The notes under the pieces were generated by a model. The model did not search any database, was not told where the DNA came from, and worked only from the letters and a program-made list of their open reading frames with translations. A program made the position numbers and the translations under genes. DNA of 62,670 nt, taken from positions 1 through 62,670 of the forward strand of contig JAFYZR010000053.1 of NCBI GenBank assembly GCA_017557345.1, in the 5' to 3' direction. How positions within the stretch are numbered: the first letter of the stretch is position 1; the number at the start of each line of letters is the position of its first letter. This document shows positions 2 through 57,742 of this stretch, piece after piece. The stretch is from Paludibacteraceae bacterium (GTDB lineage Bacteria; Bacteroidota; Bacteroidia; Bacteroidales; Paludibacteraceae).

Positions 2-1276
2 AACCCCAAAAGCACCATCTCGCACCCCCTCTACACCGAGGAATCCAAGAAATACTACATCGACTACAGCCTCTTCGACCAGTGGATCTGGCTCACCGAC
101 GGACGCATCGTCATTCTCTCCGAAAGAGACGGTTGGAGACGCGCTTACCTCCATGATGCACAAGGGGCAGAGATCAAACCCCTCACGCCAGAAGGCATCG
201 ACGTCACGGCCCTCTATGCCGTGGACGAGTCCATTCAGACGCTCTATTACCAGGCCGCTCCCACACCCGCTACGCGACAGATCTTTGCACTGAACTTCAA
301 GAAAAACGAACTCACTCAGCTCACCCAAGCCGACGGCTGTCATGCCGCACGCTTCTCCAAGGACGCCAAGCGTTTCATCGACTGCTTCCAGTCCTTCGAT
401 ACACCCAATACCTACACCCTCTATGAACTCAAAGCCGGCAAACTCAAAGGCAAAGGCACGGTCCTCCTCGATAACGACGACATAGCAAAGGAGTGGAAAA
501 GTTACAACCTCCCCGAACCACAACTCCTCTCCATACCCAATGCCCAAGGCAAACCCCTCGAGGCCATGCTCATGCTCCCAAATCGAAAATCGAAAATCGA
601 AAATCGAAAATCTCCTCTGATTCTCATGCACTACTCCGGACCCGCCTCACAACGAGTCCTCAACCGCTGGCGCAAACGCTTTGAGTACGCACTCGTCGAA
701 GCCGGATATGCCGTACTCATCGTCGACCCACGGGGCTCCGACTGCAAAGGACGCGAATGGAGAAACGAGACATACATGAGCTTAGGACTCAAAGAGTCCG
801 AAGACCTCATCGCCGCCGCTAACTGGGCTGCACAGCAACCCGACATCGACGGCACACGAATGGCCATCATGGGTTGGAGCTACGGCGGATACCAGACGCT
901 CTTCACCATGAGCCAGCACAATCATCCCTTCAAAGCGGGCGTCGCCATCGCACCCGTCACCGACTGGCGGCTCTACGACAGCGCCTACACCGAACGCTAC
1001 ATGCGCCGCCCGCAAGTCAACGACCGCGGATACAACACCGCTTCGCTCATACCGCGGGCCAAAGATCTCAACGGAGAACTCCTCATCATCCACGGCACAG
1101 GCGACGATAATGTGCATGTGCAGCATACCATGCAGTACATCGACGCACTCGTACGGGCCAACAAGCAATTCGAGATGCAGCTCTACCCGGATGACAACCA
1201 TTTCCTCCGCAAAGGCAACAATGCCCAACATATGCACACCAAAATCATGAATTTCCTGGATACAAAACTAAAATAA
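2..1276 (+). CDS. S9 family (DPP IV-like) serine peptidase, 5' end missing
   Basis: This is the C-terminal part of a prolyl oligopeptidase-clan peptidase, which trims dipeptides from oligopeptides in the periplasm. The reading frame is open from base 2, so the start lies outside the window; the GTG near 221 is internal. The first part resembles the end of a beta-propeller. The alpha/beta-hydrolase domain follows, with nucleophile motif GWSYGG (Ser codon 878-880), an Asp in HGTGDDNVH and a His in DDNHF. A 7-bp tandem repeat (580-612) codes for a Lys/Arg/Ser-rich insert between propeller and hydrolase domain. It ends 11 bases before the sugar permease, which suggests co-transcription. Family assignment is firm; the substrate is not known. 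Confidence 0.92.
   Translation, partial: NPKSTISHPLYTEESKKYYIDYSLFDQWIWLTDGRIVILSERDGWRRAYLHDAQGAEIKPLTPEGIDVTALYAVDESIQTLYYQAAPTPATRQIFALNFKKNELTQLTQADGCHAARFSKDAKRFIDCFQSFDTPNTYTLYELKAGKLKGKGTVLLDNDDIAKEWKSYNLPEPQLLSIPNAQGKPLEAMLMLPNRKSKIENRKSPLILMHYSGPASQRVLNRWRKRFEYALVEAGYAVLIVDPRGSDCKGREWRNETYMSLGLKESEDLIAAANWAAQQPDIDGTRMAIMGWSYGGYQTLFTMSQHNHPFKAGVAIAPVTDWRLYDSAYTERYMRRPQVNDRGYNTASLIPRAKDLNGELLIIHGTGDDNVHVQHTMQYIDALVRANKQFEMQLYPDDNHFLRKGNNAQHMHTKIMNFLDTKLK
580..612. repeat. 7-bp tandem repeat inside peptidase gene
   Basis: Four to five copies of the heptamer AAAATCG lie in the coding frame. Because 3 x 7 = 21, they encode a seven-residue period (NRKSKIE then NRKS). The insert sits at the junction of propeller and catalytic domain. 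Confidence 0.9.
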
Positions 1277-1287
1277 CCAATAATATT

Positions 1288-2547
1288 ATGTCTCAAAAAC
1301 AATCCAAATCACTTACCGTGATCACAATCATCGCCATGATGTTTCTCTATGCGATGATCTCTTTAGTCACCAACCTTGCTGCCCCCGTAGGTAAGATCTG
1401 GGGCGAGTCATTCACCGACCCCGCACAAGCGGAAAGAATGGGCATGTTGGGCAACTTGTTCAATTTCCTCGCATACCTCATCATGGGTATTCCTGCAGGA
1501 AATATCTTAGCTAAGTTCGGCTACAAGAAAACGGCCTTGGCTGCTATCGCACTCGGTTTCATCGGCATGGCGGTACAATGGGTCAGCGGTGCCATGAGCA
1601 GTTTCGCTATCTATCTCTTCGGCGCACTACTCGGCGGCTTCTGTGTATGTATGCTCAACACCGTCGTTAACCCGATGCTCAACCTTCTCGGAGGTGGCGG
1701 TAACCGCGGTAACCAGCTGAACATGATCGGCGGTACACTCAACTCCCTCACCGCCTCGCTCACACCTATGCTCGTCGGCGCACTCATCGGACAGAGCCTC
1801 GTTGGCAAGACCATCTCTGATGTGAACATCGTACTCTATATAGCCATGGGCATCTTTGCTCTCGTCTTCCTCATCCTCTGGCTCACCCCGTTGGCTGAAC
1901 CCGAAGGCGCAGGACAGCAAGTCACATACGAGCGTTCTCCGTGGGCTTTCCGTCACCTCACACTCGGCGTCATCGCTATCTTCTTCTATGTAGGTGTGGA
2001 AATAGGCATCCCCGCAACACTCATCAGCTATCTCACCCCGACTGCCGGCTTTGCTGCTGCAGGCTTCGTGGCTGGACTCTATTGGCTGCTCATGCTCGTC
2101 GGTCGCACCGTCGGCTCGTTCATCGGTGGTAAAGTAAGCAGCCGCACCATGGTCACAGTAGTGGCTTCACTCGCTATCGCATTGATGGTAGCTGCCATGC
2201 TTCTCGGGGACTCGCTCAAGGTCATGCTGCCTACCAGCTGGGCTTTTGAGATGGCATCCATGCCGGTAGCTGCACTGCTGATTATGCTTTGCGGTCTTTG
2301 CACGTCCGTCATGTGGACTTCTATCTTCAATATGGCTACCGAAGGACTCGGCAAATACACAGCCAAAGCAAGCGGTATCTTTATGATGATGGTTGTCGGC
2401 GGCGGCGTTGTCCCGTATATCCAGAGCGTCGTTGCGGCACATAACTGTCTCATCAGTTATATCGTTCCCGTCCTTGGCGTCGCTTTCATCCTCTACTATG
2501 CCCTCTGGGGAAGCAAAAACGTTAACAAAGACATCAAAATAGACTAA
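1288..2547 (+). CDS. MFS sugar permease, FHS (GluP/FucP-like) type
   Basis: This 419-residue inner-membrane protein has about 12 hydrophobic segments. It probably imports glucose or a related hexose with protons. The N-terminal half has the pattern of the fucose/glucose-galactose permease branch: a Gly-rich helix ending in NTVVNPMLNLL, then GGNRGNQLN. It lies directly upstream of a ROK sugar kinase, so uptake and phosphorylation are paired. ATG at 1288 follows the peptidase stop by 11 bases. Family confidence is high; the exact sugar is inferred from the kinase. Confidence 0.85.
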   Translation: MSQKQSKSLTVITIIAMMFLYAMISLVTNLAAPVGKIWGESFTDPAQAERMGMLGNLFNFLAYLIMGIPAGNILAKFGYKKTALAAIALGFIGMAVQWVSGAMSSFAIYLFGALLGGFCVCMLNTVVNPMLNLLGGGGNRGNQLNMIGGTLNSLTASLTPMLVGALIGQSLVGKTISDVNIVLYIAMGIFALVFLILWLTPLAEPEGAGQQVTYERSPWAFRHLTLGVIAIFFYVGVEIGIPATLISYLTPTAGFAAAGFVAGLYWLLMLVGRTVGSFIGGKVSSRTMVTVVASLAIALMVAAMLLGDSLKVMLPTSWAFEMASMPVAALLIMLCGLCTSVMWTSIFNMATEGLGKYTAKASGIFMMMVVGGGVVPYIQSVVAAHNCLISYIVPVLGVAFILYYALWGSKNVNKDIKID

Positions 2548-2579
2548 AACAATTAACAAATAACAAATCACAAATCATG
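2548..2579. repeat. 7-8 bp tandem repeat at stop/start junction
   Basis: Degenerate units AACAATT, AACAAAT, AACAAATC and ACAAATC fill the whole gap between the permease stop (2545-2547) and the kinase ATG (2577). The last unit supplies the start codon (CAAATCATG). Confidence 0.85.
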
Positions 2580-3533
2580 AAAAAATACGCACTTGGCATC
2601 GACTTAGGTGGAACAGGCACCAAGTTCGGTTTGGTAAATGACGAAGGTCAAGTTTTACGCAGTAACTCTATCCCTACACAGCAGTACCCGGATATAGATA
2701 ACTACTGCGACGTGCTCTGCGAAGGACTCAAGAAACTCGTTGCAGAGGAAGGATTAACCATGAGTGACATCGTCGGAGTAGGGTGTGGAGCTCCAAACGC
2801 TAACTTCTATTCCGGATGCATTGAGCAGGCTCCTAATCTTCCGTGGAAAGGTGTTGTGCCGTTCGCTAAACTCATCAGCGAGCGTATGGGCGTTAAGTGT
2901 ACCATCACCAATGACGCGAACGCAGCTGCACAAGGAGAAATGATTTACGGTTCGGCTCGAGGAATGAAGAACTTCATCGTCATCACACTCGGTACAGGCG
3001 TTGGCTCAGGCATCGTGATTGATGGTAAACTCCTCTACGGACATGACGGCTTCGCCGGTGAGTTAGGACATTGTAAAATCGACCACTCTGGCAACGGACG
3101 TCTCTGCGGATGCGGACAGAAAGGTTGTATCGAAGCATACGCTTCGGCTACAGGCGTAGCGCGCACAGCGAAAGAGATTGTAACCGCTACTACACAGCCT
3201 ACACTCTTGCGAAATCTGCCCGACATCGACCATATTACATCTAAAGATGTATTCGATGCAGCGGAGAAGGGTGATTTGGTAGCTAAGCAGATCTTTGACT
3301 ACACCGGTCGTCTCCTTGGTGAGAAACTCGCGGACTTCGTGCATTTTTCCAGTCCTGAGGCAATTATTCTCTTCGGTGGTCTAACTAAGTCCGGTCACTG
3401 GATCATGGACCCGATTCGTGAGGCACTTGACGCTAATCTTATGCCGATTTGGAAGGGCAAAATACCTGTTTCCATCTCTATCCTCAAAGATAGCGATGCT
3501 GCCATACTCGGTGCTTCCAGCTTAGCTTGGTAA
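2577..3533 (+). CDS. ROK family glucokinase
   Basis: A cytoplasmic 318-residue kinase that phosphorylates glucose, or a related hexose, at C6 using ATP. The N-terminal phosphate loop is DLGGTGTKFG (about residues 9-18). The ROK signature follows a GELGHCKID segment, and the zinc ligands are a His plus CGCGQKGC at about residues 164-183. Length is normal for the family. It follows the sugar permease and precedes a deacetylase, and the junctions on both sides are made of short tandem repeats. A mannokinase or N-acylhexosamine kinase role cannot be excluded. Confidence 0.9.
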   Translation: MKKYALGIDLGGTGTKFGLVNDEGQVLRSNSIPTQQYPDIDNYCDVLCEGLKKLVAEEGLTMSDIVGVGCGAPNANFYSGCIEQAPNLPWKGVVPFAKLISERMGVKCTITNDANAAAQGEMIYGSARGMKNFIVITLGTGVGSGIVIDGKLLYGHDGFAGELGHCKIDHSGNGRLCGCGQKGCIEAYASATGVARTAKEIVTATTQPTLLRNLPDIDHITSKDVFDAAEKGDLVAKQIFDYTGRLLGEKLADFVHFSSPEAIILFGGLTKSGHWIMDPIREALDANLMPIWKGKIPVSISILKDSDAAILGASSLAW

Positions 3534-3539
3534 TAACCG

Positions 3540-3573
3540 TACACTGTACACTGTACACTATACACCATACACC
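3540..3573. repeat. 8-9 bp tandem repeat upstream of deacetylase
   Basis: Units of the type TACACTG / TACACTA / TACACC follow the glucokinase stop and end three bases before the conserved reading frame of the next gene. No ATG and no ribosome binding site are left in this junction. The same word family recurs at 45500-45533. Confidence 0.9.
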
Positions 3574-3575
3574 AA

Positions 3576-4157
3576 ATTAAGCACATAGTACAACGCTTGT
3601 TCCCGTACGCCATTTGTCGGACGGGGCAAGCAGTGTATTTGACGTTTGACGACGGACCCATACCCGAAGTAACACCAAAGGTGTTAGACATCCTGGCCAA
3701 GTACGACGTGAAGGCTACTTTCTTCATGGTAGGCGAGAATATCGACAAGCACCCGGAGGTGTACGAACAGGTACGTAAAGCAGAACATAGCATAGGCAAT
3801 CACACCTATAATCACTTGAAAGGATGGCGGGTCTCATTCGCAGAATATATGGCGAATGTAGATAAGTTCCCAAAGCGGACAAACTTATTTAGACCTCCAT
3901 ACGGAAAAGCCACACTCCGACAACGGAAAGCATTGATAGACAAAGGATATAAAATCATTTATTGGGACATATTGACTCGTGACTACGAAGCCACCCGAAC
4001 ACCCGAACAGATGTTACAGCAGATCCAAAGGAACACAACGCCGGGGAGCATTATCAATTTCCATGACTCCCTCAAATCCAATGAACGGATGTTAGCTGTG
4101 TTACCAAAGGTCATCGAATGGCTCCAATCACAAGGATATAAAATAGATAAATTATAA
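3576..4157 (+). CDS. Polysaccharide deacetylase (NodB fold)
   Basis: A carbohydrate esterase family 4 enzyme of about 190 residues that removes N-acetyl groups from peptidoglycan or a similar glycan. Visible motifs are TFDDGP (metal-binding Asp), the His pair in NHTYNH, and RPPYG. No signal peptide or lipobox is seen. The start is unusual. The frame is open back to the upstream stop at 3534 but holds no ATG. Family-like residues (IKHIVQRLFPYA) begin at an ATT codon at 3576; the first conventional alternative is TTG at 3597, which would cut these residues off. I chose 3576 to keep them. Metal and catalytic motifs are intact. Confidence 0.85.
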   Translation: MKHIVQRLFPYAICRTGQAVYLTFDDGPIPEVTPKVLDILAKYDVKATFFMVGENIDKHPEVYEQVRKAEHSIGNHTYNHLKGWRVSFAEYMANVDKFPKRTNLFRPPYGKATLRQRKALIDKGYKIIYWDILTRDYEATRTPEQMLQQIQRNTTPGSIINFHDSLKSNERMLAVLPKVIEWLQSQGYKIDKL

Positions 4158-4175
4158 ATCATAAATCACAAATTT
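4149..4175. repeat. 7-8 bp tandem repeat overlapping stop and TTG start
   Basis: Units AAATTAT, AAATCAT, AAATCAC and AAATTTG run through the deacetylase stop (4155-4157) into the TTG start codon of the next gene. This is the same word family as 2548-2579 and 37143-37206. Confidence 0.85.
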
Positions 4176-6072
4176 GAAATTAAAAAAATACATAGTATTT
4201 TTTCTATCCCTCCTGCTCTTTGCCAGTTGTGCAAACAGAGGTATAGGACCGCAAGGTGGGCCCAAAGACTCCATCCCTCCTGTTCCGTTACATTCGGAGC
4301 CAGAGATTGGTGCGCTTCAGTTCCATGGTAAGCGCATAGAGGTCACTTTCAACGAATACATCCAATTGGATAATGTGGCTTCTAATCTAATCATGTCCCC
4401 GCCACAGCAAACACCGCCGGACGTTAAGGCAAGAGGTAAGAAACTCATCGTACAGTTCCAGGATTCCCTGCGTGACAGCACAACCTACACCCTTGATTTC
4501 GGAGATGCGGTTTGTGATTACCATGAAAAAGTGCCGCTCCATGGTTTCTCGTTCTATTTCTCCACAGGCGATGAGATAGACACCCTCGAAACAACCGGTC
4601 AGGTATACGATGCCGAGACCTTAAATCCCGTCAAGGGTATCGTTGTGGGTATTCAAGACAACCTGGCAGACAGCGCTTTCACTACCATGCCGTTCGTCCG
4701 CATAGCCAAGACCGACTCCGCGGGTTTCTTCCGAATAGGTAACATCCATCCGGGCACTTACCGCTTGTATGCCATCGATGACCTCAGCCGCGATAACCGA
4801 CTCACAGTAGGTGAGAGTCTGGCTTTCATGGACCAGACCCTAACTATCAAAGACGAAGGACCTGCACCTCTAACCACTAACCCCCTAACCCCTAATCCTT
4901 CATCCGATTCCATTCCTCCGGATAGTTTATTCACCGATACTATTTCTCTGGATTCAATCGCCCTCAACAAGCAGTTTGCTAAACCGGTAGTGACCAAGAG
5001 TGTCCTCTTCCTTTTTAAGGAAGAGCAACAACGCTTATACCTGCAGCGCACCGGTCGTGACGAGCAGCATAGAATTACCTTTGCTTTCTCTTCCCCGCCA
5101 GACAGCGTAATGGCATGGCGAGTGATGAAACCATCGGAGATAGATACCACAAAGAATGACTCAGCGTGGATAGATCCTACGCCGTATATATACACCCAGT
5201 ATTCTCTCAAAGGAGATACCGTCAACCTTTGGTTGACCGATAGTATAGCTATAACCCAGGACTCCATCTTCCTGGAGGCCAAATATCGCCGTACGGACTC
5301 CGTCTATAACCTCGAGTGGTACACCGACACACTACGGGCTATTTGGCGTGCACCTAAACTGACGGCAAAGATGCGGGAAATGGCGGAGCGCCGTAATCGT
5401 AATAGACGCTTGGATCTCCGTACCAATGCACGGAGAGACTTCGACATCTTCGATACGCTGTATATCGCTTGTGCAACGCCGCTGGCAAGCATTGAACCGG
5501 ACTCCTTCCATGTTAGCGAGCGTTCAGAGGCTGGCCTGGCACCTATTCCGTTTATTATTGCACCTTACGACACGCTACCGATGAAGTTGCAGATAATCGC
5601 TGACTTCCAGCCCGGCAAGTCCTATGAGTTGCAAATTGACAGCGCAGGTCTCCATGATGTATACGGTACAACGCATATTCGGGGTACATACCCGCTTGAC
5701 GTGAAATCGCTTGCTGACTACTCAACACTTCGCGTTAAGTTAAATCCCTTCGAGCCAAAGGCTCGTATACAAGTGTTGAACAGCCAGGATAAAGTATTGC
5801 GGGAATTACCGGCTGTCCCCGAAGGTGCTTTCTTTGAGTACCTCAAACCCGACACTTATTATCTCCGCCTCTACCTCGATGAGAACGGAGACGGCAAATG
5901 GACCACGGGTAATTGGGCAGAGAAACGGCAACCGGAACCGGTCTTCTATTTCCCGGAGAAAATACAAACGAAGTCTAACTGGGATTTCGAGGAGGAGTGG
6001 GATTACAACGCAGTACCGCAAACATCCTCTAAACCCGCCGCAATAAGGAAAGTAGGCGGAAAGACCAAGTGA
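4174..6072 (+). CDS. Ig-like domain lipoprotein (Big_5-type N-terminus)
   Basis: A 632-residue predicted outer-envelope lipoprotein. The signal peptide ends in the lipobox LFASC at about residues 15-19. The N-terminal domain (GPQGGPKDSIPP, then VTFNEYIQLDN) matches the Ig-like family found across Bacteroidetes. A carboxypeptidase-like fold (about 140-210, GTYRLYAIDD) and a long variable beta-rich region follow. The start is TTG inside a tandem repeat. A second repeat (4868-4900) encodes a Pro/Thr/Asn linker, PLTTNPLTPNPSS, near residue 235. Function is unknown; members are usually single-copy housekeeping lipoproteins. It is coupled to pnuC by a TGATG overlap. Confidence 0.85.
   Translation: MKLKKYIVFFLSLLLFASCANRGIGPQGGPKDSIPPVPLHSEPEIGALQFHGKRIEVTFNEYIQLDNVASNLIMSPPQQTPPDVKARGKKLIVQFQDSLRDSTTYTLDFGDAVCDYHEKVPLHGFSFYFSTGDEIDTLETTGQVYDAETLNPVKGIVVGIQDNLADSAFTTMPFVRIAKTDSAGFFRIGNIHPGTYRLYAIDDLSRDNRLTVGESLAFMDQTLTIKDEGPAPLTTNPLTPNPSSDSIPPDSLFTDTISLDSIALNKQFAKPVVTKSVLFLFKEEQQRLYLQRTGRDEQHRITFAFSSPPDSVMAWRVMKPSEIDTTKNDSAWIDPTPYIYTQYSLKGDTVNLWLTDSIAITQDSIFLEAKYRRTDSVYNLEWYTDTLRAIWRAPKLTAKMREMAERRNRNRRLDLRTNARRDFDIFDTLYIACATPLASIEPDSFHVSERSEAGLAPIPFIIAPYDTLPMKLQIIADFQPGKSYELQIDSAGLHDVYGTTHIRGTYPLDVKSLADYSTLRVKLNPFEPKARIQVLNSQDKVLRELPAVPEGAFFEYLKPDTYYLRLYLDENGDGKWTTGNWAEKRQPEPVFYFPEKIQTKSNWDFEEEWDYNAVPQTSSKPAAIRKVGGKTK
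4868..4900. repeat. 7-8 bp tandem repeat inside lipoprotein gene
   Basis: Units CTAACCA, CTAACCCC, CTAACCC and CTAATCC are translated in frame as a proline-rich linker between two domains. Confidence 0.85.
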
Positions 6073-6749
6073 TGGTAAATAAACGGCAAATCTTCGATTA
6101 TGGTTTTCTGGCAGTAGGACTACTCATTCAAGTAGTCACCTATTTCGTGAGTATTCAGCATTTATCCGTCGGTGACCAATTCTCCGTTTTATCCCTCCTC
6201 AGCGGATGTCTGGGTATTTGCTCCGTATGCCTTGCTTCGCAAGGAAATATACTTACCTTCCTTTTCGGTTTTGCACAAGTCATTACCTATACTTACCTTT
6301 GCTGGGCGCAACGGTTCTACGCAGAAATAGCCATCAATGCATACTATTTCGGTACGATGATTTACGGTGTATTTGTATGGAAATCAAGAGTCAAGAGTCC
6401 AGATTCAAAACTCGTTACTCCGCGCCGCTTAAGTTGGCAGACAATAACGATTATTGCCGTTTCTACGCTTGTTCTCTCTTGGCTGGTAGGCTGGGGCTTA
6501 TCCGCTTGGACTGACGACACACAACCTTATTTGGATGCCTTTACAACAGTACCTGCGCTGGTAGCACAGGTACTCATGATTCTTGTTTATCGAGAACACT
6601 GGTTTATCTGGCTGGCAGTCGATATACTCAGTGTAATCCTTTGGCTGCGGGCAGGTGATTATTGTATGGTCGCCCAATACGCTTTTTGGTGCGCTAACTG
6701 CCTCTACGGACTTCACCGTTGGCGCTCGTTAGGCATCTCCAAGGTATAA
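6072..6749 (+). CDS. pnuC: PnuC-like nicotinamide mononucleotide/riboside transporter
   Basis: A 225-residue inner-membrane protein with seven or so hydrophobic segments. It probably takes up nicotinamide riboside, or another vitamin-type ribonucleoside, by facilitated diffusion. Family features are the W-x(n)-Y spacing and an aromatic-rich helix, FYAEIAINAYYFGTMIYGVFVW. ATG at 6072 overlaps the upstream stop as TGATG; a GTG three bases earlier is possible. A degenerate repeat at 6383-6413 encodes KSRVKSPDSK, a polar loop between two helices. The 3' end overlaps the convergent DUF4837 gene by 37 bases. PnuT or PnuX specificity cannot be ruled out. Confidence 0.85.
   Translation: MVNKRQIFDYGFLAVGLLIQVVTYFVSIQHLSVGDQFSVLSLLSGCLGICSVCLASQGNILTFLFGFAQVITYTYLCWAQRFYAEIAINAYYFGTMIYGVFVWKSRVKSPDSKLVTPRRLSWQTITIIAVSTLVLSWLVGWGLSAWTDDTQPYLDAFTTVPALVAQVLMILVYREHWFIWLAVDILSVILWLRAGDYCMVAQYAFWCANCLYGLHRWRSLGISKV
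6383..6413. repeat. 7-bp-type repeat inside pnuC
   Basis: Units ATCAAGAG, TCAAGAG, TCCAGAT and TCAAAAC are degenerate heptamers. They encode the charged loop between two membrane helices of PnuC. Confidence 0.65.
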
Positions 6750-8727: not shown

Positions 8728-8758
8728 AAAAACTCCGCGATTTGCGGAGCTTTTTTTT
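8728..8758 (+). terminator. Intrinsic terminator of the AraC gene
   Basis: The six-base-pair stem CTCCGC/GCGGAG with loop GATTT is followed by eight T residues, right after the stop codon. Confidence 0.93.
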
Positions 8759-8792
8759 GAATTAGCGATTTTCGAGTTAGCGAGTTAGGGGT
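8757..8792. repeat. 8-9 bp tandem repeat at the end of glyA
   Basis: Degenerate units (GAATTAGC, GATTTTC, GAGTTAGC, GAGTTAGG, GGTTA) fill the space between the AraC terminator and the glyA stop codon (minus strand, 8792-8794). Confidence 0.75.
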
Positions 8793-10131: not shown

Positions 10132-10211
10132 AAGTATGCTCATTTTTTGTAAAATTTCATTTTATTAAGGAGTCAAAATAAAAATCTTATATAACGAAAA
10201 AACTAGGAAAT

Positions 10212-10255
10212 GCCCCTTACTTGCCCCTTACTTGCCTGTTACCGGCACAGGCAAG
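10212..10255. repeat. 11-bp tandem array upstream of the GH3 operon
   Basis: Two exact copies of GCCCCTTACTT (10212-10222, 10223-10233) are followed by two degenerate 11-base units (10234-10255). The array lies about 25 bases upstream of the GH3 promoter. The same period occurs at 34774-34828 and 57765-57819 with unrelated unit sequences. Confidence 0.8.
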
Positions 10256-32469: not shown

Positions 32470-33456
32470 ATGACCCATTTTCAATACGCAATACCCAATA
32501 CTTTCCGCATGGATGTGAAGGCAAAGATTTTTGCCGAATATAGTAGTGTGGAGCAATTGCAGGAACTGCTGGAGCGTTATAAAGACGAGCAGATCTTGCA
32601 TATCGGGGCGGGTAGTAACTTGCTCTTTACCAAGGACTTCGACGGAGTCATCTTGCATTCGGCCATGCGCCGTGCAAGGGCTTTGGATGAGGACAGCGAC
32701 TCGGTGCTTATTGAAGCCGAGAGCGGACTCGTTCTGGATGAACTCATCGCACAATTGTGCGATATGGGGCTTTCTGGAATGGAAAACCTCAGTTATATTC
32801 CGGGCGAAGTAGGAGCATCGGCTGTGCAAAATGTCGGGGCGTATGGCGTGGAGGCAAAAGATGTGATTGTTAGGGTCAATACCTGGTCAATACCTGATCA
32901 GAACGTTGTAATCCTAGACAATACACAGTGTCAATTCGGTTATAGGGACAGCATATTTAAGAATGAATTGCGGGGAAAAGCCATCGTCACGCATGTCGTT
33001 TATCGGCTCAACAAGCATTTTGAACCCAAATTGGACTATGGCAATTTGCGCGCGGAAGTGGGCAATAACCCGACTCCAATGTCTGTGCGAGAAGCCGTGA
33101 TTCGTATTCGCCAACAGAAACTGCCCGAAGTCTCGGAACTCGGTTCGGCGGGATCGTTCTTCAAGAATCCCATCGTGCCGCGCGAGACGTATGAAGCCAT
33201 TGCCGCGCAATATGAACGAGTGCCGCATTTCGAGCAGGATGGGGGAGTCAAGATTCCTGCTGCGTGGCTCATCGAGCAATGTGGATGGAAAGGCAAAACG
33301 CTTGGCGGGGCGCAATGTTATCCAAAGCAGCCGCTGGTGCTCGTTAATGCCAATAATGCCACGCCGCAAGACATCGTCAACCTGGCTGCGGCTATCTGCC
33401 AAGACGTCAAAGACAAATTCAATATCACCATTAACCCGGAAGTAAATTATATCTAA
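32470..33456 (+). CDS. murB: UDP-N-acetylenolpyruvoylglucosamine reductase
   Basis: A 328-residue FAD enzyme that makes UDP-N-acetylmuramate in peptidoglycan synthesis. FAD-binding segments are GAGSNLLF and YIPGEVGASAVQNVGAYG, and the proton-donor serine is in GSAGSFFKNP. The layout is the E. coli type I form. ATG 32470 is 14 bases after nadE; an alternative ATG at 32446 overlaps nadE. A 7-8 bp repeat (32481-32503) encodes the very N-terminus, including the conserved NTF segment. Confidence 0.97.
   Translation: MTHFQYAIPNTFRMDVKAKIFAEYSSVEQLQELLERYKDEQILHIGAGSNLLFTKDFDGVILHSAMRRARALDEDSDSVLIEAESGLVLDELIAQLCDMGLSGMENLSYIPGEVGASAVQNVGAYGVEAKDVIVRVNTWSIPDQNVVILDNTQCQFGYRDSIFKNELRGKAIVTHVVYRLNKHFEPKLDYGNLRAEVGNNPTPMSVREAVIRIRQQKLPEVSELGSAGSFFKNPIVPRETYEAIAAQYERVPHFEQDGGVKIPAAWLIEQCGWKGKTLGGAQCYPKQPLVLVNANNATPQDIVNLAAAICQDVKDKFNITINPEVNYI
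32481..32503. repeat. 7-bp tandem repeat in the first codons of murB
   Basis: Three units of CAATAC followed by G, CC and T are translated as QYAIPNT, just after the start codon. Confidence 0.7.
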
Positions 33457-37142: not shown

Positions 37143-37206
37143 ATGATAAATCATAAATCACCACGGCTCTGCCGATCGACAGAAACCACAAATCACAAAT
37201 CTTATG
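37143..37206. repeat. 7-8 bp tandem repeats, split by an insert, at the start of rlmB
   Basis: Units ATAAATC, ATAAATC, then a 24-base insert, then ACAAATC, ACAAATC. They lie just after the dsbD stop and form either the 5' leader or the first 20 codons of the next gene. Confidence 0.8.
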
Positions 37207-37955
37207 ACACCAAGCGTCCACCGGAGAAAGAGATGATCTTCGGCATTCGGGCTGTGATGGAAGCTGTAGATGCTGGCAAAGTGCTGGACAAAGTGCTCAT
37301 TCGTCGGGATATGTCTTCGGCTATCGGTCGGGAATTGCTCGTTAAGTTAGAAGGAACCAATACACCGGTACAGAAAGTGCCGGTAGAGAAACTCAACCAG
37401 TTTACGGACAAGAACCACCAAGGAGTTATTGCTTTCTTAAGTCCGATAGAGTTCACTCCGCTGGAATCGCTTGTACAAAACCTGTACGATGAAGGCAAAG
37501 TGCCTTTGCTCATGATGTTGGATGGCGTGACAGACGTTCGCAATTTCGGAGCCATCGCTCGTACATGCGCTTGCGCAGGCGTTCATGCGTTGATAATAGG
37601 TGCACGAGGTAGCGTAGCCATTAACGGAGATGCGGTAAAAGCATCTGCAGGAGCTTTGCACACACTTCCTATCTGCAAGGTAGAGAATATGCAAAATGCC
37701 TTGCGTTATCTCCAAGAGAGTGGTTTGCGCATCGTGGCGGCTACAGAACATACAGACCGGAATTATACGGAAGTTGATATGACCGTACCAACCTGTATCG
37801 TTATGGGATCGGAGGAAAAAGGTATCTACGAGGAGAACCTTAAACTCTGTACCGATCAAGTGCGGCTTCCTATGACGGGTGTCATTGAGTCACTTAATGT
37901 CTCTGTAGCGGCTGGAGTATTTATCTACGAAGCTGTTAGACAGAGAAACCTCTAA
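37143..37955 (+). CDS. rlmB: TrmH-family 23S rRNA 2'-O-ribose methyltransferase (RlmB type)
   Basis: A SpoU/TrmH methyltransferase that uses SAM to methylate a ribose in 23S rRNA (G2251 in E. coli). It has an N-terminal substrate-binding domain (EMIFGIRAVMEA) and a SPOUT knot with DVRNFGAIARTCACAG, IVMGSEEKGI and IESLNVSVAAGVFIYE. The start is uncertain. ATG 37143 gives an odd N-terminus made of tandem repeats; ATG 37233 (MIFGIRAV) has GGAG seven bases upstream and matches where the domain begins. I give the longer form as the outer bound. Confidence 0.88.
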   Translation: MINHKSPRLCRSTETTNHKSYDTKRPPEKEMIFGIRAVMEAVDAGKVLDKVLIRRDMSSAIGRELLVKLEGTNTPVQKVPVEKLNQFTDKNHQGVIAFLSPIEFTPLESLVQNLYDEGKVPLLMMLDGVTDVRNFGAIARTCACAGVHALIIGARGSVAINGDAVKASAGALHTLPICKVENMQNALRYLQESGLRIVAATEHTDRNYTEVDMTVPTCIVMGSEEKGIYEENLKLCTDQVRLPMTGVIESLNVSVAAGVFIYEAVRQRNL

Positions 37956-37983
37956 TTGCTAATTCACTAATCGCTAATCGAAA
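37952..37983. repeat. 7-8 bp tandem repeat between rlmB and pseudouridine synthase
   Basis: Units CTAATTG, CTAATTCA, CTAATCG and CTAATCG start on the rlmB stop codon and end six bases before the next ATG. Same words at 38666-38706. Confidence 0.85.
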
Positions 37984-37989: not shown

Positions 37990-38670
37990 ATGGTCGTTTT
38001 ATACGAAGATAACCATATAATAGCCGTCAATAAGACCTGTAACGAGATCGTGCAGGGCGATAAAACCGGCGATACGCCGCTTTCTGAGTTGGTAAAGGCT
38101 TACATCAAGGAGAAATACAACAAACCTGGCGAAGTCTTCTTGGGAGTAACGCATCGTTTAGACCGCCCGACGAGTGGAGTAGTGCTCTTTGCACGTACAT
38201 CCAAAGCCCTCACGCGTCTGAATGAGATGTTCAAGAGCCATGAACAGATAAAGAAAACGTACTGGGCAATTGTTCAAGGCGCACCTAAACAACCTGAGGC
38301 ACGGTTGGAAAACTATCTGATCCGTAACGAGGCACAGAATAAATCATATATAGCCAAACCAGGCACCAAAGATGCCAAACAAGCTGTATTGACTTACCGC
38401 ACGCTGGCAAAAGGCGAACATTATACGCTTTTGGAAGTAAATCTAGAGACCGGGCGGCATCATCAGATCCGTTGCCAATTAGAGGCCATCGGTTGTCCTG
38501 TGAAAGGTGACTTGAAGTATGGCGCAAAGCGCTCTAATCCTGATGGCGGCATTTGTCTGCATGCACGGCAAATAGAATTTATCCACCCCGTAAGTAAACA
38601 ACCTATATGCATCACCGCTCCTATTCCCGAAGATTCTTTGTGGCAGCAATTAGCCTCATCTGTTCGCTAA
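37990..38670 (+). CDS. RluA-family RNA pseudouridine synthase
   Basis: A 226-residue synthase that isomerises uridine to pseudouridine in rRNA or tRNA. The catalytic motif is HRLDRPTSG (Asp about residue 58). LLEVNLETGRHHQIR and the final GICLHARQIEF complete the fold. It lacks the N-terminal S4 RNA-binding domain of RluC and RluD, like the short RluA/TruC forms. It overlaps the pectate lyase gene by 64 bases. Confidence 0.92.
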   Translation: MVVLYEDNHIIAVNKTCNEIVQGDKTGDTPLSELVKAYIKEKYNKPGEVFLGVTHRLDRPTSGVVLFARTSKALTRLNEMFKSHEQIKKTYWAIVQGAPKQPEARLENYLIRNEAQNKSYIAKPGTKDAKQAVLTYRTLAKGEHYTLLEVNLETGRHHQIRCQLEAIGCPVKGDLKYGAKRSNPDGGICLHARQIEFIHPVSKQPICITAPIPEDSLWQQLASSVR

Positions 38671-40289
38671 TCTCTAACTCCCTAATCGCTAATTCCCTCA
38701 TCGCTTTCCCTGGGGCTGAGGGATTTGGTAAGTATGCCTCCGGAGGTCGCGGAGGTCAGGTGGTGTATGTCACGACATTGGCTGACGATGCAGAAGGAGC
38801 AACGACGGGTTCATTACGATGGGCTCTGAAGCAATATGAAGGAGAACCGCTGACGGTATGTTTTGCCGTTTCGGGTGAGATACGGCTGGTCAAGGACTTG
38901 CGTATCAACCGTAAGAACTACACTATCGCAGGGCAAACCGCGCCGGGTGTAGGTATTGTCATCACGCATAATAAGGTCAACTGTGGTGGCTCAGAGAATT
39001 TCATCATTCGTAACATTCGTTTTCGTATCGGGCGAAATGACGTGAACGGTAACCTTATCACGCAAAATGCTTTCGGCGCGGAAAACTGCACCAATTATAT
39101 CATCGACCATTGTGAGTTTGGCTGGTCTACAGAGGAGAATATGAATACTTACGACAGCCATTTTATCACCGTGCAGTATTGTATCGTGCATGAAGGACTT
39201 AATAATTCCGGTCACCCCAAAGGTGCTCGTGGATACGGCTGTCAATGGGGTGGTTCACCCGCTACGTATCACCATAACTTGTTGATTAACAACAATAAAC
39301 GTTCCTGCCGCTTCAATGGGGCACAAAGCAACGATTGGGTGGTTTACCTCGATTATATCAATAATGTCAACTATAATTTCGAAGGTGGTAGTAATGGTTG
39401 TTACGGAGGAGAAAACACGGCTAAACTGGCGGAAGGTGAGTATAATGGTCTGAATTCCGCGCATGAGTGCAATTTTATCAATAATTACTATAAGGTTGGT
39501 CCAAATACAACCAATAAGAAGTACTTCGTTTCTGTAGAGAAAGCCCGTTCGGGTGCTACCAGTTGGGGACCAAGTCAATGGTATATTAATGGTAATGTGT
39601 TCGACGGCGTTCCTTCTGCTACTGAGGATAACTGGTCTGCGGTAGTTGGTAAATCGCCTTATGATAATGTTGACACGCTCCGCGTGGATACCCTTATTCG
39701 TCCCAAAACACCTTGGTGGCGATGGACAGAAGACTCTATTTACGGTCAGTATGACTTCGATGAACTGGCTTATGCCGCGAGTTCTTTCCAAACGGCAGAA
39801 GCGGCTTATCAGACGGTATTGGATACTGCCGGTTGTTTCCCGCGTGATCATGTGTCGAAACGTTTAGTGGCAGATACCAAAGCCGGCACCCACACATACG
39901 TAGGTTCCAAAACAGGCAAAAAAGGTATAATAGATACCGAAGAAGATGCAGAAGGTTTCTTTAATTATGTGGAAGTGGCGGCATTTGCAGATTTCGATTC
40001 CGATGGAATGCCGGATTTCTGGGAGGCGGCTAACGGCACAGACCCAATAAATCCGGATAATAACGCACTGCACGAGAGCGGCTATACAATGCTGGAGATG
40101 TATCTTGCCTATGCGATGACACATAAAGAACCGATGGATGATGGATATCAAGAGCAACAAGCTCTTGAAGAGGTGATAGATGAGCGGTTAGAAGTTAGAG
40201 AAAAAATACTCCGCGAGGGACAATTATTCATCCGCCGCGGAGAGAAAATATATACCGTTACTGGACAACTTTACCAGTCTAAACAATAA
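38607..40289 (+). CDS. Pectate lyase-like (PL1-type) secreted protein
   Basis: A 560-residue exported right-handed beta-helix protein, probably cleaving pectate by beta-elimination. The mature part begins FPGAEGFGKYASGGRGGQ, the typical opening of Bacteroidetes PL1 enzymes. It continues with TGSLRWAL, IAGQTAPG, IIRNIRFRIG and IIDHCEFGWSTEENM. A DSDGMPDFWE calcium-binding-like segment (about 450) and a C-terminal REGQLFIRRGEKIYTVTGQ strand block follow, the latter reminiscent of sorting tails. The signal peptide hydrophobic core is encoded by a tandem repeat (38666-38706). It overlaps the upstream synthase by 64 bases and convergent DUF2490 by 19. Confidence 0.88.
   Translation: MHHRSYSRRFFVAAISLICSLISNSLIANSLIAFPGAEGFGKYASGGRGGQVVYVTTLADDAEGATTGSLRWALKQYEGEPLTVCFAVSGEIRLVKDLRINRKNYTIAGQTAPGVGIVITHNKVNCGGSENFIIRNIRFRIGRNDVNGNLITQNAFGAENCTNYIIDHCEFGWSTEENMNTYDSHFITVQYCIVHEGLNNSGHPKGARGYGCQWGGSPATYHHNLLINNNKRSCRFNGAQSNDWVVYLDYINNVNYNFEGGSNGCYGGENTAKLAEGEYNGLNSAHECNFINNYYKVGPNTTNKKYFVSVEKARSGATSWGPSQWYINGNVFDGVPSATEDNWSAVVGKSPYDNVDTLRVDTLIRPKTPWWRWTEDSIYGQYDFDELAYAASSFQTAEAAYQTVLDTAGCFPRDHVSKRLVADTKAGTHTYVGSKTGKKGIIDTEEDAEGFFNYVEVAAFADFDSDGMPDFWEAANGTDPINPDNNALHESGYTMLEMYLAYAMTHKEPMDDGYQEQQALEEVIDERLEVREKILREGQLFIRRGEKIYTVTGQLYQSKQ
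38666..38706. repeat. 8-bp-type tandem repeat encoding a signal peptide
   Basis: Units GCTAATCT, CTAACTCC, CTAATCG, CTAATTCC, CTCATCG. They contain the stop codon of the upstream gene in one frame and encode SLISNSLIANSLIA in the other. Confidence 0.85.
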
Positions 40290-45499: not shown

Positions 45500-45533
45500 C
45501 ACACCTTATACCGTACACTATACACCTTACACA
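45500..45533. repeat. 7-8 bp tandem repeat upstream of the glycan cassette
   Basis: Units ACACCTTA, TACCG, TACACTA, TACACCT and TACAC share words with 3540-3573. Confidence 0.75.
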
Positions 45534-51600: not shown

Positions 51601-52751
51601 TAAATTTTAACCAACCTCATCTAACGGGCAAAGAAACCCACTACATGTACGAAGCTGTAAACACAGCCAAGCTGTCCGGTAACGGAATGTTCACAAAGCG
51701 TTGCCAGCAGTGGTTTGAACAGCGTTATGGATTCCGTAAATGCCTGCTTACTACTTCCGGCACGGATGCACTGGAAATGTGTGCTATGCTTTGTAATCTT
51801 AAGCCGGGTGACGAAGTCATCATTCCTTCCTATACCTTTGTCTCAACGGCGCTGGCTTTCTTGCGAGAAGGAGCCAAAGTGGTCTTTGCTGACTCTATGC
51901 AGAGAAACCCGAACATAGACGCAGAAACGCTGGAATCCCTTATTACACCGCGGACAAAGGTCATAGTGCCCGTTCATTATGCCGGCGTGGCATGTGACAT
52001 GGATGCCATTATGAATATTGCGAAAAAACACAACCTCCTTGTCGTGGAAGATGCCGCTCAGGCCATTGATAGTTATTTCCAATCCCCAATCACCAATCAC
52101 CAATTGCCGCTTGGCGGCATCGGTCATCTCGCTGCTTTCTCTTTTCATGAAACGAAGAATGTAACAGCAGGAGGCGAAGGAGGATTATTGGTTGTTAATG
52201 ATGAGCGGTTTGTGCGTCGGGCTGAGATTATTTGGGAGAAAGGAACCAACCGCGCGGAGTTTTTCCGTGGTGAAGTAAATAAGTATGGCTGGGTTGATAT
52301 TGGTTCTTCTTTCCTTCCGGCTGAAATCAATGCCGCTTTTCTCTGGGCGCAACTGGAGAACCTGGATGACATTCAGGCTAAGCGCAAAGCGCTTTGGACA
52401 CGGTATTACGAGTTGCTGAAACCCTTGGAGGAACAAGGTCATTTCAAAATGCCGGATGTACCGAACTATGCTACGAATAATGCCCACATGTTTTATATCG
52501 TTTTGCCATCTTTAGAGGCTCGCACGGCGTTCTTGAAGTATCTGAAGGACAATGGAGTAGGGGCAGTATTCCATTATTTAAGCCTGCATAGCAGTGTATA
52601 TTATGCTGATAAGCATGACGGAAGAGCGTTGCCACAATGTGATCGTTATGCGGACTGTTTAGTTCGTTTGCCGCTCTTTTATGACCTTACGCTTGAACAA
52701 GTGGATCATATATGCGAAATTATAAGTACATATTATCTATCGCACTGTTAA
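51597..52751 (+). CDS. DegT/DnrJ/EryC1 aminotransferase, WecE/RffA-like
   Basis: A 384-residue PLP sugar aminotransferase. It resembles E. coli WecE, which makes dTDP-4-amino-4,6-dideoxygalactose from the 4-keto sugar, over most of its length: KLSGNGMFTKRCQQW, IPSYTFVSTALAF, VPVHYAGVACDMD, and the PLP lysine (Lys187) in SFHETKN. A tandem repeat (52079-52105) adds an insert of about six residues (SPITNHQ) just before GGIGHLAAFSF, where WecE is continuous. The 3' end overlaps the next gene by 40 bases. The sugar made is inferred. Confidence 0.92.
   Translation: MINFNQPHLTGKETHYMYEAVNTAKLSGNGMFTKRCQQWFEQRYGFRKCLLTTSGTDALEMCAMLCNLKPGDEVIIPSYTFVSTALAFLREGAKVVFADSMQRNPNIDAETLESLITPRTKVIVPVHYAGVACDMDAIMNIAKKHNLLVVEDAAQAIDSYFQSPITNHQLPLGGIGHLAAFSFHETKNVTAGGEGGLLVVNDERFVRRAEIIWEKGTNRAEFFRGEVNKYGWVDIGSSFLPAEINAAFLWAQLENLDDIQAKRKALWTRYYELLKPLEEQGHFKMPDVPNYATNNAHMFYIVLPSLEARTAFLKYLKDNGVGAVFHYLSLHSSVYYADKHDGRALPQCDRYADCLVRLPLFYDLTLEQVDHICEIISTYYLSHC
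52079..52105. repeat. 7-8 bp tandem repeat inside the WecE-like gene
   Basis: Units CCAATCC, CCAATCA, CCAATCA, CCAATT. In translation they form an extra loop that WecE lacks, so the repeat looks inserted into an older gene. Confidence 0.85.
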
Positions 52752-54208
52752 TCTGCGCCTTAGCCTATACGCTTTGGTTCGTGTTCTCCGGTTTCGGAAA
52801 TCACCAGGACCCGTTGTATTGGCTATATAAATACGAGCATTTAGAAGGCGGATGGCTGGCTGCAGGCACTATTCTTACAGGCGGAACGATTGTCAAGCTT
52901 TTCGGTGCACAACTGTTACCGTTACGTCTAGCGGGTTGGCTCTGCGTGGTAGGTGCTATCGCGTTGCCTTATTGCTGCCTTTTGACGAAAGAGCAACGGC
53001 GTGAAAACCTTCACTGGCTTGCACTGGCATACATCATAATGGGATACGGCGCATTCCAGGAATTCAGCCCAGGAACGCTTTCTGTCCTTCTTTTGAGTGC
53101 TTTGTGGGTCACACAGTCGCCAATCATCGCAGGATTAGCGATTGCGGTGAGATTTCCGAATATCCTTGCGTTGCTGGTCCTCATACCCTTGTGGAAGAAA
53201 CGCTCGCTTTGGAATATACCTATAGCTGCGCTTACTGCCGGCATCATTTATCTGTTGGGTTATTTCTTTATGACTCCCGCAGCAGCGGATGGTGCTATGA
53301 GCAGCCATGACTTTTGGCCGATGATAAGCAAACTATGGTCTAATGGAGGCAAACTCATCGGATATATCATCCTCGCCATTGGAGTTCTTGCGATAGGTAA
53401 ATTTGACATCAAGAATCCTAAATTACAAAATATCAAATACCTGTTACCAATTCGCACGATATTGGCAGGTGCTGCGCTTTTTTATTTTGTCTGGTATGCC
53501 ATCAAACCGATGCAATGGTATAATATTGACCTTTCCTATCTGCTTTCCGCATTGTGTCTGGTAATAGCATTTGCAACGCGGGAGAAGATATTGTATGTTG
53601 GTGCTGCGATATTGGCGGTGGCAACATTAGGAACCGATACGGCATGGCTAAAGTTATTCCCCGTCGTTTTATGCCTGCTTCCTGTTGCTGCAACGTACCA
53701 TGAATTATCTATGAAGCGTTATTTATGGGGCGTTTTGGCGATTCTAAGTATAGTGGTTGTGATGCGCATGACGACGAATAGTGTAGGGCAGACCAACCTT
53801 CTCAAGGCCACAACGTTCGCCTCTATTTCACCATACCGGCATATTGCTATTCGCGAAGCAGAACAAGAACGGCTCACGCAATATATTGCCGATGTCGATA
53901 GCCTCCAACGTCCAATCTTGGCTATTGGCCAAGAGATGCATCTTATGCGGGCGGTAACGGGCTGTGAGGCTGCAAAATTCAATGAGTTCTGGTCGAATAT
54001 CTTTGACTCTGTCTATACGGCTAAATATCGCGAGATAATACGTCAGGAGCGGCCGATAGTGTTCTGCTCCTATTCTCCGCAGTTCAAAACAAAACCTATT
54101 TACAAAGATCGTGAGAGTGTGTTGGAGAATATGTTGCGCGAAGAAGGTTATCGTGAAATAGAGCGCTCTAAATACAAATACATGATTTATATTCCATCTG
54201 AAAACTGA
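52712..54208 (+). CDS. Polytopic membrane protein, probable glycosyltransferase
   Basis: A 498-residue membrane protein with about 11 helices and a soluble C-terminus of some 110 residues (EQERLTQYIADVDSLQRPIL). The first loop contains FSGFGNHQDPLYWLYKYEH, with acidic residue and His near helix 1, again GT-C-like. Together with the protein at 46671 it gives the cassette two unknown membrane transferase or polymerase candidates. It overlaps the aminotransferase and ends in a tandem repeat that carries the holA start. Confidence 0.65.
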   Translation: MRNYKYILSIALLICALAYTLWFVFSGFGNHQDPLYWLYKYEHLEGGWLAAGTILTGGTIVKLFGAQLLPLRLAGWLCVVGAIALPYCCLLTKEQRRENLHWLALAYIIMGYGAFQEFSPGTLSVLLLSALWVTQSPIIAGLAIAVRFPNILALLVLIPLWKKRSLWNIPIAALTAGIIYLLGYFFMTPAAADGAMSSHDFWPMISKLWSNGGKLIGYIILAIGVLAIGKFDIKNPKLQNIKYLLPIRTILAGAALFYFVWYAIKPMQWYNIDLSYLLSALCLVIAFATREKILYVGAAILAVATLGTDTAWLKLFPVVLCLLPVAATYHELSMKRYLWGVLAILSIVVVMRMTTNSVGQTNLLKATTFASISPYRHIAIREAEQERLTQYIADVDSLQRPILAIGQEMHLMRAVTGCEAAKFNEFWSNIFDSVYTAKYREIIRQERPIVFCSYSPQFKTKPIYKDRESVLENMLREEGYREIERSKYKYMIYIPSEN

Positions 54209-54227
54209 ATACTGAATGCTGAATACT
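54199..54227. repeat. 7-8 bp tandem repeat spanning stop and holA start
   Basis: Units CTGAAAA, CTGAATA, CTGAATG, CTGAATA. One unit holds the TGA stop (54206-54208) of the membrane protein and another the ATG start of holA (54216). Confidence 0.9.
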
Positions 54228-57509: not shown

Positions 57510-57540
57510 TCGATTAGTGATTTTCGAATTAGTGATTTTA
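57510..57540. repeat. Tandem repeat between riboswitch terminator and metK start
   Basis: Units (read on minus strand) AAAATCACTAATTCG and AAAATCACTAATCG form two 14-15 base copies built of the same CTAATCG words as 37952-37983. Confidence 0.8.
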
Positions 57541-57542
57541 AT

Positions 57543-57624: not shown

Positions 57625-57639
57625 TTTCAAAATCGGCTG

Positions 57640-57671
57640 CAAAATTACTGCTTTTTTTTGACATATACAAA
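57640..57671 (-). promoter_or_regulatory. Bacteroidetes-type promoter for metK-lspA-DUF4296
   Basis: On the minus strand TTTG (57668-57671) and TAATTTTG (57640-57647) are 20 bases apart, with upstream box TTTGTATATGTCA. Confidence 0.88.
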
Positions 57672-57695
57672 TTTTTCCGTATTTTTTTGCGAAAA

Positions 57696-57742
57696 GAGAT
57701 GATAGAAGGATAGAAGTCTAGATAACTAGAGGTCTAGAAGAC
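57696..57742. repeat. 8-bp-type repeat in the intergenic region
   Basis: Units GATAGAAG (twice), TCTAGATA, ACTAGAGG, TCTAGAAG form a degenerate octamer array. Confidence 0.6.

What the first reader, a model, noticed from the sequence alone, without database searches (positions are those of the whole stretch)
580..57742. Dispersed heptamer/octamer tandem repeats (STRR-like) across genes and junctions
At least 15 loci carry 3-5 degenerate copies of 7-9 bp words: 580, 2548, 3540, 4149, 4868, 6383, 8757, 32481, 37143, 37952, 38666, 45500, 52079, 54199, 57510, with weaker cases at 14308 and 57696. Word families recur at distant loci (CAAATCAT; CTAATCG; TACACTG; CCAATCA/CTGAATA). They resemble the heptameric STRR repeats of cyanobacteria, but I know of no description for Bacteroidales. 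Most lie in intercistronic gaps; about seven lie inside coding sequence. This implies an active or recent process of repeat insertion or expansion.
Basis: partly seen in the sequence, partly recalled or inferred. Interest (0 to 1): 0.85.

Follow-up and report, generated by a model that had tools for sequence, protein, structure and literature searches.

The report
Seven-base repeat arrays filling gene gaps
This bacterium and many of its sister species carry many short runs of a seven-letter DNA word, mostly in the gaps between genes, and the word at a given gap is often different or missing in the next species, which makes the group a good place to find out how such repeats are born and spread.

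Summary
TRF recovers 14 of the 15 main loci. Period-7 arrays are far above chance (score >=13: 7 in the window, 0 in 20 shuffles) and recur through genome and genus. The 7-nt step dominates even deep inside ORFs (58 arrays, against 2, 7 and 12 of period 6, 9 and 12), so it looks generative rather than selected for frame. In close species groups, 69 orthologous sites show fast turnover: 25 same word, 9 changed copy number, 14 different array, 19 none, 2 weak; by eye some of these calls are soft. Words are partly genome-specific. RVT_1 is missing from some heavy carriers and MutS from none of 52 genomes, so reverse transcription and mismatch-repair loss are poor explanations. Best reading: neutral filler DNA made by slippage or microhomology template switching with a 7-8 nt step, kept where genes tolerate it. 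The kind is known (heptanucleotide repeats; STRR; TAACTGA repeats, recorded also in Paludibacter). New here are the genus-wide scale and the exchange of word, period and filler type at fixed sites. Spread of words in trans is suggested, not proven.

The parts
580..612 (.). period-7 array AAATCGA x4.7 inside an S9-peptidase-like ORF (2-1276)
2548..2577 (.). period-7 array AACAAAT/CAAATCA x4, fills the MFS-ROK gene gap up to the start codon; 9 of 16 relatives examined have a 2-4 nt gap here
3536..3574 (.). period-7 array TACACTG/TACACCA x5.6 after the ROK gene stop; 15 of 21 relatives have a shorter baseline gap, 6 a longer one with other arrays or fillers
4147..4186 (.). period-7 array ATAAATC/ATAAATT across a gene junction
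4866..4905 (.). period-7/8 array CTAACCC inside ORF 4174-6072 (Big_5 protein), in a region of variable length among relatives
6384..6408 (.). period-7 array TCAAGAG in the NMN-transporter-like ORF; relative L125 has a longer, different tract at the same place
8754..8788 (.). TTAGCGA/TTTTCGA composite 7+8 array between convergent ORFs
32482..32501 (.). period-7 array CAATACC at the 5' end of the MurB-like ORF
37146..37201 (.). two short ATAAATC/CAAATCA arrays at an ORF start
37952..37980 (.). CTAATCG array before the RNA pseudouridine synthase gene; similar arrays on other contigs
38664..38711 (.). CTAATCG/CTAATTCC composite 7+8 array encoding part of the N-terminal hydrophobic stretch (SLISNSLIANSLIA) of ORF 38607-40289
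45501..45532 (.). degenerate TACACCT array outside the listed ORFs
52079..52104 (.). period-7 array CCAATCA inside the DegT-like aminotransferase ORF (peptide QSPITNHQ)
54198..54227 (.). period-7 array CTGAATA spanning the stop of one ORF and the start of the next
57510..57540 (.). two copies of a 15-mer ATTAGTGATTTTCGA (7+8 composite)
   Evidence: read; below TRF threshold
57701..57740 (.). degenerate period-8 array TAGAAGTC/GATAGAAG

Best explanation
The arrays are neutral filler DNA. During replication or repair, a nascent strand slips or switches template by a step of about 7-8 nt, using a few matching bases, and lays down tandem copies of a short word. Arrays survive where extra DNA is harmless: in gaps between genes and in tolerant parts of proteins, where changes in multiples of three are kept. 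They then turn over by one-unit gains and losses and by replacement with another array or another filler. In part, new words seem to be copied from arrays elsewhere in the same genome, giving each species its own favoured words. Shown: the period, the junction preference, turnover and replacement at fixed sites, frame filtering, genome-specific words. Inferred: slippage or template switching as the chemistry, copying in trans, neutrality.
For: Period 7 dominates in ORFs and outside them, although period 6, 9 or 12 would be easier on frame (58 against 2, 7, 12). Of 133 arrays 69 lie at junctions or unplaced and 64 in ORFs, although ORFs cover 93.8% of those loci (about 16-fold). At two of the window's own gaps most relatives have short or baseline spacers and others carry different arrays. 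69 orthologous sites: 25 same, 9 copy change, 14 different array, 19 none, 2 weak. The four listed period-7 copy changes at junctions are of 7, 7, 7 and 14 nt; length changes in ORFs are multiples of three at 9 of 11 sites, at junctions at 3 of 26. Words match within genomes more than permuted labels give (214 against 144.9, 1 of 1000 reached it; without the own genome 118 against 51.5, 0 of 1000). Distant arrays share variant-bearing blocks >=20 nt in 12 pairs, against a mean of 2.8 (max 5) over five unit-order shuffles.
Against: The trans-copying part is weak: among 31 lineage-specific arrays only 4 word-matching pairs fall in one genome, against 2.14 expected (729 of 5000 permutations reach it). 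In the own genome word matches within (0.075) hardly exceed those between genomes (0.068). Slippage alone does not explain why loads range from 0 to 596 pattern hits between species of one genus, why words resemble those of distant Bacteroidales (0.073 against 0.039 for shuffled letters), or how an array is exchanged for a palindromic filler. Some 'different' and 'none' calls are soft (see the full report).
Confidence: 0.5

Rival explanations
1. The arrays spread in trans: units are copied from array to array by short homology, so each genome's word set evolves as a dispersed family, a minimal selfish element with no gene of its own. (Compatible with the best explanation as its stronger form.)
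For: Genome-specific word sets; favoured words on several contigs of one genome in the capped listing (G009 AGTTTAG, G010 GGTTAAT, G006 AATTGAY); shared variant-bearing blocks, 12 against 2.8.
Against: Lineage-specific arrays do not show significant word sharing within a genome. Words are also shared between genomes and with distant families.
Confidence: 0.25
2. The arrays are regulatory: binding sites or unstructured leaders near start codons, kept by selection, as MacGregor proposed for TAACTGA repeats.
For: They lie at junctions near stops and starts; at co-directional junctions they are C-poor in gene sense (A 0.40, C 0.08, G 0.19, T 0.33).
Against: Word, period and presence change at the same junction between species; 64 of 133 lie inside ORFs. 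C-poverty can follow from tolerance at translation starts.
Confidence: 0.12
3. A reverse transcriptase or REP-type (Y1) transposase writes or moves the arrays.
For: Constant step, degenerate words, loose grammar RRTYNMN (4.32 bits against at most 3.83 in 15 letter-shuffled controls, which had fewer random starts than the real set). Y1_Tnp matches at E<=0.001 in 18 of 26 high-load and 10 of 26 low-load genomes (Fisher two-sided 0.05).
Against: RVT_1 in 5 of 26 high-load and 3 of 26 low-load genomes and in none of the heavy carriers G100, G140, G018. Most Y1 matches are weak and partial; matches below 1e-7 are in 5 high and 1 low genome, and high-load G148, G115, G121 and G019 have none.
Confidence: 0.05
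4. Y-family polymerases cause the slippage, and species differ in load because they differ in these polymerases.
For: IMS domain in 26 of 26 high-load and 19 of 26 low-load genomes (Fisher two-sided 0.0098); median pattern count 50 in 80 genomes with and 30 in 19 without IMS, of 99 at least 85% complete (Mann-Whitney 0.028).
Against: Not required: IMS-negative G067, G094, G104 and G154 have 91, 73, 72 and 61 hits; not sufficient: IMS-positive G150, G085 and G157 have none. No correction for kinship was made, and several families were tried.
Confidence: 0.09

Closest known systems
Heptanucleotide long simple sequence repeats (Mrazek 2007; paper not held; content taken from passages of PMC4679880 and PMC4692102)
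   Same: Seven nucleotides the most abundant unit in most genomes; interaction with the polymerase and slippage already proposed there as the cause.
   Different: Here short, degenerate arrays of many words, with 8 and 11 as secondary periods, in Bacteroidales.
TAACTGA direct repeats of Beggiatoaceae, Cyanobacteria and some Bacteroidetes (MacGregor 2015, PMC4679880; abstract, outline, passages and section 12 read)
   Same: Heptamer arrays of a few units near gene starts and in gaps; relatives with shorter gaps and no repeats; two sets in Paludibacter propionicigenes.
   Different: One word there, many here; TAACTGA not among 153 genus words; 64 of 133 arrays here are in ORFs.
GGGAATC / GGGGA(T/C)T repeats of Xanthomonas and Nostoc (PMC4692102; passages read)
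   Same: Heptamers, mostly intergenic, with a favoured word per genome; length and sequence variation at shared sites is reported there too.
   Different: Those are G-rich and quadruplex-prone; here many words, with change of word, period and presence at orthologous sites.
Cyanobacterial STRR sequences (recalled; the term appeared only in the search listing)
   Same: Heptameric tandem arrays dispersed over the genome.
   Different: Different lineage; no link by descent tested.
Constant-size, variable-sequence tandem repeats of Bacillus (PMC8161180; abstract and passages read)
   Same: Unit size fixed while sequence varies.
   Different: Sizes 20-21 and 52 nt there.

Membership tests
Heptanucleotide simple sequence repeats (LSSR class) | tandem units of 7 nt in excess of chance | tested here: met
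Heptanucleotide simple sequence repeats (LSSR class) | length change by whole units between relatives | tested here: met
   the four listed period-7 junction copy changes are 7, 7, 7 and 14 nt
Heptanucleotide simple sequence repeats (LSSR class) | slippage as mechanism | not testable with these tools
   needs experiments
TAACTGA repeats | the word TAACTGA | tested here: not met
   0 of 153 words exact, 5 one letter off
TAACTGA repeats | position close to start codons | tested here: inconclusive
   many junction arrays reach the next start, but 64 of 133 lie in ORFs
Xanthomonas/Nostoc G-rich heptamers | words GGGAATC or GGGGA(T/C)T | tested here: not met
   0 of 153 exact; one off 2 and 7, none for GGGGACT
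Cyanobacterial STRR | heptamer arrays dispersed in a cyanobacterial genome | tested here: not met
   nearest named relatives of the pseudouridine synthase are Paludibacteraceae and other Bacteroidales records
RT- or RAYT-made elements | a reverse transcriptase or Y1 transposase in carriers | tested here: not met
   RVT_1 absent from G100, G140, G018; Y1_Tnp absent from G148, G115, G121, G019; a borderline excess of weak Y1 matches in high-load genomes is noted
Phase-variation repeats | frameshifting copy changes in ORFs | tested here: not met
   9 of 11 length changes in ORFs between species are multiples of three; within-species variation not tested

The most novel reading that the evidence does not exclude
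These genomes run an unnamed process that writes short tandem arrays with a 7-nt step into gene gaps and protein loops, copies words between distant arrays, and swaps one array for another at a fixed site, so that spacers and loops are repeatedly rewritten in trans without a dedicated transposase or reverse transcriptase: a gene-free dispersed repeat that evolves as a genome-wide vocabulary.
Probability: 0.22. Interest if true: 0.78.

Novelty: new variant of a known kind. Interest (0 to 1): 0.5.

Why it matters
Why seven nucleotides is a favoured unit of bacterial tandem repeats is still unexplained; slippage tied to the polymerase was proposed in 2007 (as cited in PMC4679880 and PMC4692102). 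A genus of 178 sampled species with pattern counts from zero to hundreds, and sites that differ between close species, makes birth, replacement and spread of such arrays directly measurable. It also shows a source of new spacer DNA and new peptide tracts, such as the hydrophobic N-terminal stretch encoded at 38664.

Tried and rejected
Reverse transcriptase as writer: RVT_1 matches in 8 of 52 genomes, 5 high-load and 3 low-load, none in G100, G140 or G018; rejected. REP-type transposase: matches at E<=0.001 in 18 of 26 high and 10 of 26 low genomes, Fisher 0.05, most weak, and several heavy carriers without one; not excluded as a helper, rejected as the writer. Loss of mismatch repair: MutS_I in 52 of 52; rejected. 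Y-family polymerase: a modest association, neither required nor sufficient; left as a weak rival. Clustering of variable positions inside the unit, expected from a templated writer: weak (24 of 2000 permutations). Word sharing among lineage-specific arrays: not significant. Single-word repeat family: rejected, words are many. Artefact of binning or assembly: unlikely, since arrays recur in MAGs of different studies and in one of 11 loci from NZ_ records (L070), and many lie in open ORFs; not excluded for single arrays.

Limits. ORFs were called by a simple longest-ORF script. Arrays under the score threshold are missed. Nine of the 20 stretches were placed on array matches, so rates are quoted. 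Word statistics used arrays of score >=12.5 and dropped neighbours within 300 nt with the same word. The close-pair table covers periods 5-13 and needs both flanks; sites without an orthologue were dropped (49 such drops in the first version). Orthologous arrays of sister species were not removed from between-genome counts, which works against the genome-specific result. In one search some flanks are only 72-80% identical; searches used sites with at least 85% and 80%. The G117/G052/G131 trio counts one site twice. Coordinates are of joined stretches, not of contigs.
Full report
What is there. The window is contig C40, bases 1-62670, of a 2.84 Mb, 155-contig genome. The nearest named relatives of its pseudouridine synthase are Paludibacteraceae and other Bacteroidales records, the first fifteen mostly MAGs, several named from rumen or gut samples. 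TRF recovers 14 of 15 listed loci. A lag scan over periods 4-30 gives 7 period-7 arrays of score >=13 in the window and none in 20 shuffles; other periods with hits at that score are 11 (4), 14, 15 and 22 (2 each) and 18 and 20 (1 each). Most period-8 arrays of this genome are the CTAATCG family with a unit one base longer (TCCCTAAT, TCGCTAAC), and 7- and 8-nt units mix within arrays, which fits the 15-nt composites at 8754, 38664 and 57510.

Scale. Sixteen own-genome stretches that avoid the array matches (320 kb) hold 12 period-7 arrays of score >=13; 20 stretches of 17 other species of the genus (400 kb) hold 48; the Markov controls hold none at period 7. The degenerate pattern RRTYNAN x4, derived from the words, has hits in 170 of 178 genomes of the genus, with totals from 0 to 596, and in 186 of 294 genomes drawn from the order. 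A detector that knows no word agrees with the contrast: per 100 kb 0 arrays in G086, 4 in G150, 13 in G148 and 24 in G100 (only 20.7 kb with 5 arrays were read for G100). The pattern covers part of the vocabulary, overlapping hits in one array are counted apart, and its reversed control also hits arrays, so counts are relative.

Where they sit. Of 133 arrays in window, own-genome and genus loci, 64 are inside ORFs and 69 at junctions or unplaced, although ORFs cover 93.8% of these loci, about a 16-fold enrichment outside ORFs. Junction arrays often run from the stop of one gene to the start of the next; of 101 array starts within 25 nt of an upstream stop, 43 fall in the last seven bases of the gene and 20 in the first seven after it, with the peak at -2 (14). 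Inside ORFs length changes between close species are multiples of three at 9 of 11 sites, at junctions at 3 of 26. Yet deep inside ORFs period 7 still outnumbers the frame-friendly periods (58 against 2, 7 and 12 for 6, 9 and 12). The step of seven is therefore put in by the process and not by selection on reading frame.

Turnover. At the window's gap between the MFS and ROK genes, of 16 relatives 9 have a 2-4 nt spacer and 6 have 20-36 nt; the sixteenth (L131) aligned only in part but visibly has a long spacer. Five of these last seven show a period-7 or -8 array by the scan (two of them sister species, some scores as low as 8), L111 and L129 do not. After the ROK gene 15 of 21 relatives have the baseline length and 6 are longer: three carry a strong period-7 array (two of them sister species), L129 a palindromic filler, L130 and L138 sequence without a scored array. 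Close species groups were then compared in detail. Of 69 orthologous array sites (periods 5-13), 25 keep the word, 9 keep it with changed copy number, 14 have a different array, 19 have none in the partner and 2 are weak; for the 45 of period 7 or 8 the figures are 14, 6, 10, 13 and 2. Reading the 14 'different' sites by eye, about nine distinct ones are clear, four are soft (related words, low-complexity tracts or poor flanks) and one site is counted twice; some of the 19 'none' are eroded or shortened versions of the same array (for example G021 92413, G140 C10 6291). Clear examples: GGTGATT against TTTGATT with flanks 96-98% identical (G112/G175); CACAATT with period 7 against GTTAAATT with period 8 (G140/G171, flanks 92.5 and 88%); a period-10 array against CTATCTC (G021/G101, flanks 92.9 and 98.5%). 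Some partners hold palindromic fillers of the CCCTCCC...GGGAGGG or ACCGTCCTTCGGACTGACGG kind instead. The NMN-transporter protein shows the same: the TCAAGAG tract in the window, a different, longer tract at the same place in L125.

Vocabulary. The 51 period-7 words of the own-genome sample give 96 near-identical pairs of 1275 (letter-shuffled words 39.3, max 58), against 27.7 on average (max 36) for random 7-mers of the same genome. Over 173 words from 18 genomes, matches within a genome are 214 against 144.9 under label permutation (1 of 1000 reached it), and 118 against 51.5 without the own genome (0 of 1000). But words also match between genomes (0.068) and with more distant Bacteroidales (0.073, shuffled letters 0.039, max 0.050). 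Words share a loose grammar RRTYNMN (4.32 bits, controls at most 3.83; the real set had 40 random starts, controls 15) and avoid GCA/TGC (1 seen, 15.3 expected) and ATG/CAT (16 against 43.7). Distant arrays share variant-bearing blocks of >=20 nt in 12 pairs, against 2, 1, 5, 2 and 4 in five shuffles of unit order. For lineage-specific arrays alone the within-genome sharing is not significant. I read this as support, not proof, for copying in trans.

Cause. RVT_1 matches occur in 8 of 52 genomes tested and are missing from G100, G140 and G018, which carry some of the highest loads. Y1_Tnp matches are somewhat commoner in high-load genomes (18 of 26 against 10 of 26, Fisher 0.05) but mostly weak and missing from four heavy carriers. 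MutS is present in all 52. Y-family polymerases are in 26 of 26 high-load and 19 of 26 low-load genomes, but IMS-negative genomes can have up to 91 hits and some IMS-positive ones none. What remains is slippage or short-homology template switching by ordinary replication or repair enzymes with a favoured step of 7-8 nt; Mrazek's idea, as cited in PMC4679880 and PMC4692102, is that seven nucleotides may be the stretch that interacts with the polymerase. Mismatch repair loses efficiency as loops lengthen (PMC4060949, passages read), so such loops should often escape it. This chemistry is inferred.

Known or new. Heptamer arrays are a known kind. Among the rows listed by the searches I saw no paper on such arrays across a Bacteroidales genus; the nearest is MacGregor 2015, with five Bacteroidetes, among them Paludibacter propionicigenes, and with relatives of Gramella and Aequorivita that lack the repeats at the same gap. 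For Xanthomonas, length and sequence variation at shared sites is on record (PMC4692102). What this window's relatives add is many words with a constant step, and exchange of word, period or filler type at fixed sites across a whole genus.

Noticed in passing
window 10211-10242, 32874-32900, 34774-34830, 57765-57817; own-genome loci: A separate class of period-11 arrays. Of 28 in the own-genome sample, 10 lie within 200 nt upstream of a TANYTTTGC promoter-like motif, against 5 of 48 period-7 and 3 of 18 period-8 arrays and 0.057 of random positions. A unit near one helical turn suggests upstream promoter elements; no intergenic control was made.
   Followed up: partly
window 57765-57817; L142:12004, L143:5102, L145:1695, L150:14318, L151:19279: A dispersed array of five CGCACTTATCG-like 11-mers, 53 nt long in each of these six copies.
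   Followed up: partly
window 23339 and 45274: A dispersed sequence with or near ATCGGTATTATGTCG; that 15-mer lies at 15 places in the 660-kb own-genome sample.
   Followed up: no
close-pair sites (G171, G140, G052, G117, G101, G021); L129: Palindromic fillers (CCCTCCC...GGGAGGG; ACCGTCCTTCGGACTGACGG) sit at sites where another species has a heptamer array, some inside ORFs.
   Followed up: partly
window 38607-38740: The CTAATCG/CTAATTCC array encodes part of the hydrophobic N-terminal stretch (SLICSLISNSLIANSLIA) of a protein without a Pfam match at E<=0.001.
   Followed up: no
own-genome loci L026 and L027 (contigs C121 and C129): Local clusters of CTAATCG/CTAATTCG-family arrays, one of 226 bp at L027:741-966.
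   Followed up: no
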